Assembly (NCBI RefSeq): GCF_039555535.1
Contig: NZ_CP154630.1
Coordinates: 3,795,001-3,859,000, forward strand
Length of the DNA: 64,000 bases
Direction of reading: 5' to 3'
Source: Stenotrophomonas maltophilia
Lineage (GTDB): Bacteria > Pseudomonadota > Gammaproteobacteria > Xanthomonadales > Xanthomonadaceae
Positions 1,082-58,302 of this stretch are shown here, piece after piece (within the stretch, counting starts at the first letter, position 1; each line of letters begins with the position of its first letter). The position numbers were made by a program, and so were the translations under genes. The notes beneath the pieces are model-generated. The model was not told where the DNA came from. It saw only the letters and a program-made list of their open reading frames with translations, and did not search any database.

Positions 1082-1095
1082 GGGGTGTGGGTGCG

Positions 1096-1114
1096 GCAGG
1101 GCTTGCAGCCCTGC
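1096..1114 (+). repeat. Short hairpin module preceding palindromic element copy A
   Basis: GCAGGGCTTGCAGCCCTGC forms an 8 bp stem with a 3-base loop. It is followed by an AAGC-rich linker (caaagcaacggcaaaagc) leading to the large palindrome at 1161. A near-identical hairpin plus a similar linker precedes copy D (58141-58158) and, on the other strand, copy C (about 12823-12843). This suggests the hairpin is a fixed part of a larger composite element about 170-190 bp long. Confidence 0.6.
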
Positions 1115-1160
1115 ACCTGCCAAAGCAACGGCAAAAGCAAAAGCTGACTATCCGTGGGAT

Positions 1161-1262
1161 GGCGGGGAGGGTCCGGTTGCAGGGGACGCCGTGAATCCGT
1201 CCATGGAGGCTCGGTCGCGCCATCCATGGCGCTCACGCCCCTGCAACCGGACCCACCCCGCC
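1161..1262 (+). repeat. Large structured palindromic element, copy A
   Basis: Arms at 1161-1185 and 1238-1262 are complementary over 25 bp with one mismatch. They enclose a 52-base cap that begins ACGCCGTGAATCCGTCCATG and contains an inner hairpin, GCGCC-ATCCAT-GGCGC. Copies B (12384), C (12663, inverted) and D (58201) share the cap but have different, internally complementary arms. The element lies in the convergent gap between the antiporter gene and metY. I recognise no encoded protein. A structural (cruciform or RNA) role is inference. Confidence 0.75.
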
Positions 1263-1320: not shown

Positions 1321-1361
1321 GGGGTCAGATCCGTTTTCCGCAGGAAAACGGATCTGACCCC
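1321..1361 (+). repeat. GGGGTCAGA palindrome, copy 1
   Basis: A perfect 19 bp dyad, GGGGTCAGATCCGTTTTCC with its complement, encloses the loop GCA. Related palindromes with the same GGGTC ends but different, internally complementary inner arms lie at 52302-52344, 54618-54658 and 62193-62229. This copy lies just beyond the terminator of metY and could reinforce termination for the rightward antiporter transcript. Confidence 0.7.
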
Positions 1362-12239: not shown

Positions 12240-12383
12240 GGAAGGGGCGGTGGGGGTGGGGACCGCCGATGGTAGGCCCAGCGGGGCCCGGGCGCCAATT
12301 CCGCGGTGGGATGATGGGTTCCAGCCAACGGCGGGGCCCCTCGTGGCTGGGGGTGGGTCGCCAAAAGCAGCTTTATTGGAGTC

Positions 12384-12489
12384 GGCCGGTCGGGATGGGC
12401 TGCGCAGGACACGCCGTAAACCCGTCCTTGGGGGCTCGATGGCGCCCTCCATGGCGCCAACGGTCCTGCGCAGCCCATCCCGACCGGCC
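12384..12489 (+). repeat. Large structured palindromic element, copy B
   Basis: Arms at 12384-12410 and 12463-12489 are complementary over 27 bp without mismatch and have a different sequence from copies A, C and D. The 52-base cap starts ACGCCGTAAACCCGTCC and contains the inner hairpin TGGCGCC-CTCCAT-GGCGCCA (first pair bulged). It lies upstream of the NCS2 permease gene, in the same gap as copy C. Confidence 0.72.
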
Positions 12490-12564
12490 CCTGACAATTC
12501 CCTGCGCGTGCCAGCCACGGAAAGGAATCAAAAGATCAAAAGCAAAAGCGGGTCGCTTCGCTCT

Positions 12565-12637
12565 GAGCCGAGCATGGCTCGGCTCTACACGAACAATTCG
12601 ATCATTTCCACGTTATCCACACATGGCGTGGATCTAC
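12565..12637 (-). repeat. Two SMAG/REP palindromes between element copies B and C
   Basis: On the minus strand GTAGAGCCGAGCCATGCTCGG (12588-12565) and GTAGATCCACGCCATGTGTGG (12637-12615) are GTAG-headed dyads. Together with copies B and C they account for most of the 618 bp between the NCS2 permease and poxB. I see no gene in this gap. Confidence 0.78.
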
Positions 12638-12662
12638 CGACAGATCGCAGGAAACTGTCGAA

Positions 12663-12772
12663 GGCGGGGTGGGTCCGGTTGCGGGGGGCCAGATCAGTCC
12701 GCGGCATGGATGCCGCGGCCAAGCCCCCAGCGACGGGTTTACGGCGTCCCCCGCAACCGGACCCACCCCGCC
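12663..12772 (-). repeat. Large structured palindromic element, copy C (inverted)
   Basis: Arms at 12663-12686 and 12749-12772 form a perfect 24 bp stem. Read on the minus strand the cap starts GACGCCGTAAACCCGTCGC, matching the other copies, and holds the inner hairpin CCGCGGC-ATCCAT-GCCGCGG. The cap is 62 bases rather than 52 because of extra bases on its 3' side. A hairpin module like that at 1096 sits at about 12823-12843 in the matching orientation, next to a short agccag tandem. Confidence 0.72.
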
Positions 12773-52301: not shown

Positions 52302-52344
52302 GCGGGGTCGGAGCCCTTTGGTTGCCGAAAGGGATCCGACCCCG
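52302..52344 (-). repeat. GGGGTCGGA palindrome, copy 2; probable terminator region of estA
   Basis: GCGGGGTCGGA...TCCGACCCCGC with inner complementary arms CCCTTTGG/CCGAAAGGG (imperfect) forms a long hairpin thirteen bases after the EstA stop. It belongs with the palindromes at 1321, 54618 and 62193. Confidence 0.65.
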
Positions 52345-52356
52345 CCTGGTTTCTGC

Positions 52357-54617: not shown

Positions 54618-54658
54618 GGGGTCAGAGCCCTTTGCCGGTGGCAAAGGGCTCTGACCCC
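54618..54658 (+). repeat. GGGGTCAGA palindrome, copy 3, between thiS and thiG
   Basis: GGGGTCAGAGCCCTTTGCC and its exact complement enclose GGT, giving a perfect 19 bp stem. The GGGGTCAGA ends match copy 1 while the inner arm differs. Its place inside the thiS-thiG transcript could affect read-through. Confidence 0.72.
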
Positions 54659-58121: not shown

Positions 58122-58140
58122 GGGTTGGGGTTTGTTGGCA

Positions 58141-58158
58141 GGGCTGCGCCCTGCACCC
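58141..58158 (+). repeat. Hairpin module preceding palindromic element copy D
   Basis: GCAGGGCTGCGCCCTGC forms a 7-8 bp stem, followed by an AAGC/AACGGC linker before copy D at 58201. It matches the module at 1096 upstream of copy A. Confidence 0.6.
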
Positions 58159-58200
58159 GCAGAAGCCGAAGCAACGGCAACAGCGTGCATTCCGTGGGAT

Positions 58201-58302
58201 GGCGGGGCACTGTGGGTTTGCGGGGACGCCGTGAACCCGTCCATGGGGGCTTGGTCGCGGCATCCATGCCGCTCACACCCCGCAAACCCACAGTGCCCCG
58301 CC
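58201..58302 (+). repeat. Large structured palindromic element, copy D
   Basis: Arms at 58201-58225 and 58278-58302 are complementary over 25 bp without mismatch; their middle, CACTGTGGGTTT, differs from copies A-C. The 52-base cap starts ACGCCGTGAACCCGTCCATG and holds the inner hairpin GCGGC-ATCCAT-GCCGC. It lies in the convergent gap behind the SLC13 gene. Confidence 0.75.

What the first reader, a model, noticed from the sequence alone, without database searches (positions are those of the whole stretch)
1161..1262. Four-copy palindromic element with covarying arms and a conserved structured cap
Copies at 1161-1262, 12384-12489, 12663-12772 (inverted) and 58201-58302 share a cap (ACGCCGTGAAyCCGTCC..., then an inner hairpin around ATCCAT). 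Their 24-27 bp outer arms differ in sequence from copy to copy yet are 96-100% complementary within each copy. The inner hairpin covaries as well: GCGCC/GGCGC, GGCGCC/GGCGCC, GCGGC/GCCGC, CCGCGGC/GCCGCGG. Three caps are exactly 52 bases. Preserved pairing with changing sequence means the fold (RNA or single-stranded DNA) is probably under selection or is made by a copying mechanism that restores both arms. It does not look like a SMAG repeat, carries no gene, and I cannot name a known family.
Basis: seen in the sequence. Interest (0 to 1): 0.85.

Follow-up and report, generated by a model that had tools for sequence, protein, structure and literature searches.

The report
Dispersed palindromes carrying twin CsrA-type hairpins
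The four palindromes belong to a large family of DNA repeats, scattered between the genes of many gammaproteobacteria, whose RNA would display two copies of the hairpin that the regulator CsrA/RsmA grips, so they may act as built-in docking sites or decoys for that regulator.

Summary
The window's four copies are 4 of at least 134 in this genome. Covariation is strong within the genome (716 double-change cells against 228 shuffled) and across 52 loci from outside the genus (673 against 187).

The 52-nt cap is not new. It is the core of the Yersinia YPAL/RU-2 repeat (83% identical for copy 1). It also resembles Rfam TwoAYGGAY, a proposed CsrA-binding RNA: 22 of 23 listed genome matches lie on these elements, all on the strand opposite the cap; only one passes the cut-off. 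On that strand both hairpins show C-ANGGAY-G in 81 of 87 copies, 20 nt apart. Wobble-type arm mismatches are G·U on that strand 30:5 and 47:10. Enlarged copies carry CsrB-type CAGGA loops.

Best reading: a dispersed, copied-and-converted intergenic repeat whose RNA is a two-site RsmA/CsrA platform. Fold, strand asymmetry and kinship are shown; binding, transcription and effect are inferred. Rivals: a single-strand-DNA mobile element, or a general mRNA 3'-end or supercoil element. New variant of a known kind.

The parts
1161..1262 (+). Copy 1: whole element (arms 1161-1185 and 1238-1262, 52-nt cap 1186-1237). Strand given is that of the ACGCCG cap; the RNA with GGA loops is read from the other strand
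   Evidence: R1 match G000:C1:3796164-3796259
1188..1210 (-). Copy 1 hairpin H1, loop 1199-1204 = ATGGAC on the minus strand
   Evidence: sequence; structure
1215..1234 (-). Copy 1 hairpin H2, loop 1222-1227 = ATGGAT on the minus strand
   Evidence: sequence; structure
12384..12489 (+). Copy 2: whole element (arms 12384-12410 and 12463-12489, cap 12411-12462; loops AAGGAC and ATGGAG on the minus strand); left half of an inverted pair
   Evidence: TwoAYGGAY 27 bits on the minus strand
12663..12772 (-). Copy 3: whole element (arms 12748-12772 and 12663-12687, cap 12688-12747, 60 nt); right half of the pair. Second loop ATGGAT on the plus strand; first loop reads AGCGAC, GGA lost
12384..12772 (.). 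Facing pair, copies 2 and 3; one of 43 neighbouring pairs (closer than 1.2 kb) in this genome, all 43 in this orientation
   Evidence: orthologous pair in congeners
58201..58302 (+). Copy 4: whole element (arms 58201-58225 and 58278-58302, cap 58226-58277; H1 58228-58250, H2 58255-58274)
58239..58244 (-). Copy 4 H1 loop, ATGGAC on the minus strand
   Evidence: sequence; structure
58262..58267 (-). Copy 4 H2 loop, ATGGAT on the minus strand; 20 nt between the two GGA motifs
   Evidence: sequence

Best explanation
These are copies of a YPAL-core repeat that spreads and homogenises among intergenic places, mostly downstream of at least one gene. When read into RNA on the strand opposite the ACGCCG cap, each copy folds into a long stem topped by two short hairpins whose loops are ANGGAY closed by a C-G pair: two high-affinity-type sites for the CsrA/RsmA dimer, 20 nt apart. 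Most likely the 3' parts of many transcripts thereby carry a two-site RsmA platform that recruits RsmA to those RNAs, or titrates it. Shown: structure, covariation, strand asymmetry, site match, kinship, distribution, placement. Inferred: transcription, RsmA binding, effect on mRNAs or on free RsmA, and how copies move.
For: Strict CANGGAYG: H1 83 of 87, H2 85 of 87, both 81 of 87 own copies; 56, 48 and 44 of 60 copies from outside the genus; never both in 20 rounds of shuffled caps. The second loop base is free in H1 and, across genera, in H2 too, while A, GGA and the closing C-G hold, as in the ANGGAN hexaloop of RsmE ligands (PMC7652899, passages). The GGA-to-GGA gap is 20 nt; CsrA bridges sites 10-63 nt apart, best above 18. 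Wobble-type arm mismatches are G·U on the GGA strand: 30 against 5 and 47 against 10; per copy 26 against 4 and 24 against 4. More widely, mismatches that keep a G on that strand outnumber those that keep a C 43 to 10 and 86 to 17. TwoAYGGAY matches 22 elements, all on that strand. Copies with an enlarged H2 carry three extra hairpins; in two of these, 15 of 18 loops in 9 distinct forms hold CAGGA, the CsrB repeat motif. One CsrA gene is present. Precedent: RsmU, cut from a 3' UTR in Xanthomonas campestris, binds RsmA in vitro and in vivo (PMC7694677, abstract and first part of section 2.5).
Against: No binding or expression data. Single copies show no orientation preference against tandem neighbour genes (cap strand same as genes 13, opposite 15). 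Ysr224, the Yersinia sRNA with this core, is modelled on the other strand (129 of 132 listed matches on the cap strand). Some copies have a foreign stem in the H1 loop and lose that site; window copy 3 lost one GGA. In the own genome the free base of the H2 loop is T in nearly all copies, so it proves little there. The GTRAA bulge and the TYG junction are conserved and CsrA does not explain them. H2 stems are 5-7 bp, whereas most SELEX ligands had 4 or fewer contiguous pairs. In the predicted minimum-energy fold of the GGA strand all six loop bases are unpaired in 49 of 87 copies for H1 and 1 of 87 for H2. RsmU itself still bound and acted with all four GGA changed, so GGA motifs alone do not settle binding. 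11 of 36 congeners show no match to the cap pattern, so the repeat seems dispensable.
Confidence: 0.58

Rival explanations
1. Non-autonomous mobile DNA: one strand folds as single-stranded DNA, and the two hairpins and bulge are recognised by an unknown transposase, as single-strand REP hairpins are by RAYTs (the RAYT comparison is recalled). The likeness to CsrA sites is accidental or exploited.
For: High copy number, and matches in 66 of 369 genomes and 58 of 271 genera of the class; YPAL is described as recently mobile from empty and filled sites (PMC2229807, passages); the strand asymmetry would also arise if single-stranded DNA of one strand is what folds; conserved GTRAA bulge and junction unexplained by CsrA.
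Against: No clean empty site or target duplication at three orthologous places; the losses that I read are ragged deletions. At the settings used, 1 of 72,556 plasmid records, no phage record and 2 viral stretches. A free base inside otherwise fixed loops is a CsrA hallmark with no obvious DNA reason.
Confidence: 0.2
2. A general 3'-end element: paired stems protect mRNA ends, hinder convergent transcription or absorb supercoils, like BIMEs; the loops are secondary.
For: 0 of 95 units inside a called gene; 19 of 36 pairs lie between convergent genes against 9 of 37 window gaps (Fisher p 0.017), and 1 of 36 between divergent genes against 8 of 37 (p 0.028); 43 of 43 neighbouring pairs face each other.
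Against: A plain stem would not fix loop letters, closing pairs and a 52-nt cap across genera. Not typical intrinsic terminators: a run of four T within 20 nt of the stem, on either side, in 13 of 133 copies. Outside the genus orientation is less strict (11 +-, 4 --, 3 -+, 1 ++).
Confidence: 0.14
3. Neutral repeat: gene conversion and template switching inside the palindrome restore both arms, giving covariation without any RNA function.
For: Block swaps of cap subtype and arms at orthologous places.
Against: Neutral repair gives no reason for the one-sided mismatch pattern (43 to 10 and 86 to 17), nor for hexaloops kept while stems vary across genera.
Confidence: 0.08

Closest known systems
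YPAL / RU-2 (Yersinia palindromic sequence, 168 bp)
   Same: The 53-nt core aligns end to end: 83% identity for window copy 1, 89% for the best own-genome copy, median 79%, shuffled caps at most 66%; intergenic and multi-copy (PMC2759123 and PMC2229807, passages)
   Different: Stenotrophomonas copies have mostly near-perfect 22-28 bp arms of other sequence, are about 100 bp, often come as facing pairs, and show no target duplication here; no paper in the held library has both 'YPAL' and 'CsrA'
TwoAYGGAY RNA (Rfam RF01731)
   Same: Outer stem and two GGA hairpins on the same strand; 22 of 23 listed genome matches fall on these elements; proposed as CsrA-binding (PMC4333381, passages)
   Different: Only one copy reaches the curated score (44 against 43 bits) and the gathering scan does not list it; window copy 2 scores 27 and the other window copies are not among the 23 (150 of 302 candidates scored). 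Listed for human gut, gammaproteobacteria and Clostridiales; the passages I saw do not call it a repeat (PMC2864571, passages)
Ysr224 (Rfam RF02770)
   Same: Its 3' half is this cap; 129 of 132 own-genome matches lie on these elements
   Different: All below the cut-off (best 42.7 of 70 bits); modelled on the opposite strand; at the same loose limit (E up to 10) 9 of 14 control genomes also ring, none over the cut-off
RsmU of Xanthomonas campestris and CsrB-type sRNAs
   Same: GGA-bearing RNAs that bind RsmA/CsrA; RsmU comes from a 3' UTR
   Different: Single-locus sRNAs, not described as repeats in what I read
SMAG / GTAG REPs
   Same: Intergenic palindromes of the same genus (PMC2817692, passages)
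   Different: 20-40 bp with a GTAG-type head, not seen at the stem base here

Membership tests
YPAL / RU-2 | Shares the palindromic core sequence | tested here: met
YPAL / RU-2 | About 168 bp with internal, imperfect inverted repeats | tested here: not met
   Elements are about 100 bp with mostly near-perfect 22-28 bp arms; so filed as a relative, not as YPAL itself
YPAL / RU-2 | Insertion with 3-26 bp target duplication | tested here: inconclusive
   Three orthologous places in 40 congeners searched; intergenic stretches cut out for 28, 23 and 24 genomes, own included: ragged losses or wholly different stretches, no clean empty site seen
TwoAYGGAY RF01731 | Two hairpins with AYGGAY-type loops on a long stem, same strand | tested here: met
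TwoAYGGAY RF01731 | Curated gathering score of 43 bits | tested here: not met
   Window copy 2 27 bits; 1 of 23 own-genome matches at 44 bits, not listed by the gathering scan; none on the elements in 20 of the 28 cross-genus loci
Ysr224 RF02770 | Curated gathering score of 70 bits | tested here: not met
   Best 42.7 of 132 matches
CsrA/RsmA-binding RNA | ANGGAN hexaloop closed by a pair, two sites 10-63 nt apart | tested here: met
   81 of 87 own copies with both strict sites, gap 20 nt; window copies 1 and 4 keep both strict sites, copies 2 and 3 do not
CsrA/RsmA-binding RNA | Binds CsrA/RsmA; transcribed | not testable with these tools
   Needs EMSA, CLIP-seq and RNA-seq
SMAG / GTAG REP | GTAG-type head at one end of a 20-40 bp hairpin | tested here: not met
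   No such head at the stem base of the four window copies; defining feature from the start of the PMC3733652 abstract and PMC2817692 passages
Intrinsic terminator | T run right after the stem | tested here: not met
   Four or more T within 20 nt on either side in 13 of 133 copies

The most novel reading that the evidence does not exclude
A mobile palindrome family has carried a ready-made two-site CsrA/RsmA module, with CsrB-like add-on hairpins in some copies, to about a hundred intergenic places per genome in Stenotrophomonas and into many other gammaproteobacterial lineages. It thereby builds a distributed RsmA sponge or regulon, in a family of bacteria (Xanthomonadaceae) where the classical antagonist RNA was once reported as missing.
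Probability: 0.3. Interest if true: 0.87.

Novelty: new variant of a known kind. Interest (0 to 1): 0.7.

Why it matters
It links things that were described apart: a Yersinia insertion repeat (YPAL), an sRNA annotation (Ysr224), an orphan RNA motif (TwoAYGGAY) and an unnamed Stenotrophomonas repeat. It gives all of them one testable function, CsrA/RsmA binding. A 2014 paper states that no rsmB homolog had been identified in Xanthomonas, suggesting an undiscovered way of controlling RsmA (PMC3937308, passage); later work found the 3'-UTR sRNA RsmU. Repeats that carry RsmA sites into 3' ends would explain how such controls can arise and make the question directly testable. It would also show a transposable element spreading a post-transcriptional regulon.

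Tried and rejected
Rfam miRNA hits: chance matches to long stems, below their cut-offs; rejected. E. coli genomes and phages gave no match and plasmids one, so they could not supply empty sites. Viral contigs: two stretches, not followed. A window gene compared with plasmids to place the genome was not informative. Integron attC was considered from memory only (variable complementary arms) and not tested by any search. The 'interrupted' copies were first taken for an IS insertion; I sought no transposase, and the inserts proved to be stem-loop modules in the loops of H1 or H2. The Rfam gathering scan of 20 of 28 cross-genus loci gave no hit on the elements. A words-of-the-cap search of papers found none. 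A deamination-only reading of the G·U asymmetry was considered: it does not account for the excess of G·A- and G·G-type mismatches on the GGA strand, but transcription-linked mutation is not excluded.

One search was given 90 loci (28, 61 of the 80 named rows, the 19 Stenotrophomonas rows being left out, and L031) and gave 110 matches; one search used the 60 of exactly 96 nt, one per locus (52). One search scored 150 of 5,992 candidates, so 134 is a lower bound. One search added three interrupted copies (137). One search listed 10 'expansions', one a false catch on the opposite strand, so 9 are counted; its search pattern fixed the stem of the first hairpin. Outputs were cut; one search covers all extracted stretches and one search printed eight of those cut from view. 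Gene calls are from my own codon-usage script, not from an annotation.

Full report
What is there. The four copies are at the stated places. Each is a stem of 25-27 bp around a cap of 52 nt (60 in copy 3). A pattern from the cap occurs 94 times in the 4.83-Mb genome of the window, 48 forward and 46 reverse, with 0 for the reversed control. A covariance model built from 87 own-genome copies finds at least 134 copies at E up to 0.001 (150 of 5,992 candidates were scored).

Structure. On the 87 copies 97.0% of cells pair, against 71.4% after shuffling and at most 51.1% after sliding; 29 of 35 pairs change on both sides; 716 cells change on both sides against 228 shuffled and at most 103 slid. Across 52 loci from outside the genus 94.8% pair against 57.3% shuffled, with 673 double changes against 187; the outer stem and the cap each exceed all 500 shuffles. 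The second set was collected with the model, which leans towards the fold.

Which strand. Reading the other strand, both loops are ANGGAY closed by C-G. If one strand folds, arm mismatches should be of kinds that hurt least on that strand. In the own genome 30 non-redundant mismatches are G·U on the GGA strand and 5 are G·U on the cap strand (p 2e-5); in 60 copies from outside the genus 47 against 10 (p 8e-7). Counted per copy the signs are 26 against 4 (57 ties) and 24 against 4 (32 ties). Wobble is not the whole of it: of 54 and 107 mismatches in all, 43 and 86 have a G, and 10 and 17 a C, on the GGA strand, so G·A and G·G types are also in excess there. That is the stability order of mismatches in RNA and in DNA helices (recalled), and it speaks for selection on the fold of the GGA strand more than for simple deamination (inference). 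The model used to collect the second set was built on the cap strand, so a scoring bias for G·U would run the other way (inference). This does not by itself separate RNA from single-stranded DNA.

CsrA likeness. Strict CANGGAYG is met by H1 in 83 of 87, H2 in 85 of 87 and both in 81 of 87 own copies, and by 56, 48 and 44 of 60 copies from outside the genus; shuffled caps never meet both. The second loop base varies freely in H1 and, across genera, in H2, while A, GGA and the closing C-G hold: closing pair C-G in 87 of 87 at both loops in the own genome, 60 and 56 of 60 outside. That is the ANGGAN hexaloop seen by NMR for RsmE; CsrA dimers bridge two sites 10-63 nt apart, best above 18 nt (PMC7652899, passages). 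Here the two GGA are 20 nt apart, held by the cap. Against it, the predicted fold leaves all six loop bases open in 49 of 87 copies for H1 and 1 of 87 for H2. Enlarged copies carry three more hairpins on top of H2. In two of them, over 9 distinct forms, 15 of 18 loops hold CAGGA, the CsrB repeat motif CAGGA(U/A/C)G; the stem of the second differs between forms and stays paired (the stem of the first was fixed by my search pattern). Other copies have an extra stem in the H1 loop, in which I saw no such motif.

Kinship. The Yersinia repeat YPAL/RU-2, printed in PMC2759123 (passage), contains the cap: 83% identity with window copy 1 and 89% with the best own copy, shuffled caps at most 66%. TwoAYGGAY (RF01731) has 23 listed own-genome matches at E up to 10 (150 of 302 candidates scored); 22 lie on these elements and all 22 on the GGA strand; one exceeds the curated cut-off (44 of 43 bits); of 14 control genomes one rings and none passes the cut-off. 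The gathering scan of that same stretch lists nothing, the permissive scan gives 44 bits, and window copy 2 has 27. TwoAYGGAY was proposed as a CsrA-binding RNA in 2014 (PMC4333381, passages). Ysr224 (RF02770) has 132 matches, 129 of them on these elements and on the cap strand, none over its cut-off; 9 of 14 controls ring at the same loose limit, none over the cut-off. Failing the curated scores, and differing from YPAL in length and arms, the element is called here a relative with the same core, not a member.

Distribution. 25 of 36 congeners and 1 of 24 genomes of other families in the order match the cap pattern with up to 3 mismatches. With the model, 66 of 369 genomes and 58 of 271 genera of the class match at E up to 1e-5; in a draw over the phylum 19 of 299, all 19 in the same class (how many of the 299 lie outside the class is not shown). 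At the settings used: plasmids 1 record, phages and E. coli none, viral contigs 2.

Placement. All 43 neighbouring pairs closer than 1.2 kb face each other; the gaps are 112-271 bp with one of 873. Outside the genus 11 of 19 neighbours closer than 400 bp do. None of 95 units lies in a gene called by my script. Of 36 pairs with both neighbours called, 19 are between convergent genes and 1 between divergent ones; of 37 window gaps longer than 30 bp, 9 and 8. Single copies between tandem genes show no orientation preference (13 against 15), a result against a simple one-way 3'-UTR device. In a facing pair, a transcript from either side meets one cap-strand copy and one GGA-strand copy (inference). 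Flanks beyond the arms are conserved in two types.

Evolution. At the three window places in congeners, cap subtype and both arms change as blocks, for example arms with GGGTAGATGGCGC and GGGTGGGTGGCGC and their matching partners at the place of copy 2. The losses that I read are ragged deletions, and no clean empty site or duplication was seen. This fits conversion between copies plus selection on the fold; the mode of spread stays unknown.

Function. One CsrA gene is present. CsrB (RF00018) has no match over the cut-off, but the one sub-threshold match overlaps a 300-nt stretch with 8 CAGGA[TCA], against at most 5 in 11,916 background stretches from all loci held (the candidate was found by sliding, the background was not slid). 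So the genome may also have a classical antagonist, which lowers the claim that the repeats fill a gap. For Xanthomonas no rsmB homolog was known in 2014 (PMC3937308, passage); RsmU, from a 3' UTR, was later shown to bind RsmA, although its GGA-to-AAU mutant still bound and acted (PMC7694677, abstract and first part of section 2.5). No paper in the held library holds both 'YPAL' and 'CsrA', and none holds any of six cap words; most subscription papers are not held, and I did not see the original YPAL paper.

Verdict. A real, widespread, structure-conserved repeat; a relative of YPAL and TwoAYGGAY; most likely a two-site CsrA/RsmA platform in RNA. Kinship and fold are firm, function is a strong but untested prediction.

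Noticed in passing
L385:1480-1780 (G000:C1:1200543-1200842, + strand): Candidate classical CsrB/RsmB-type sRNA: 8 CAGGA[TCA] motifs in 300 nt (background maximum 5), several in predicted hairpin loops, overlapping a sub-threshold RF00018 match (27.5 of 71 bits).
   Followed up: partly
L101, L054, L063, L114, L098, L113, L035, L137, L014 and others: Enlarged versions of the element with extra stem-loop modules inside the H1 loop, the H2 loop or both; the H2 module carries CsrB-type CAGGA loops.
   Followed up: partly
window 1082-1160, 12240-12383, 58122-58200 and other own-genome flanks: Conserved outer flanks of two types, GGCAGGGCTGCGCCCTGCACC...AAGCAACAGC...CATTCCGTGGGAT and CCAGCCAACGGCGCAGCCCCTCGTGGCTGG, and an inner flank like CTTCGACAGNTTCC; the real unit is longer than the hairpin.
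   Followed up: partly
window 1321-1361, 54618-54658, 52302-52345: Another palindrome family, GGGGTCAGATCCNTTTNCC with its mirror, also seen in the flanks of several of these elements.
   Followed up: no
L289:818-1522 (Xanthomonas euroxanthea) and L259:3112-3745 (Saccharophagus bin): Clustered copies: alternating + - + - in the first, four in tandem at about 180 bp in the second.
   Followed up: no
cap positions 6-10 and 26-28: The bulge is GTRAA in 84 of 87 own copies and 50 of 60 others, and the junction starts TYG in 87 of 87 own copies and most others; nothing here explains this conservation.
   Followed up: no
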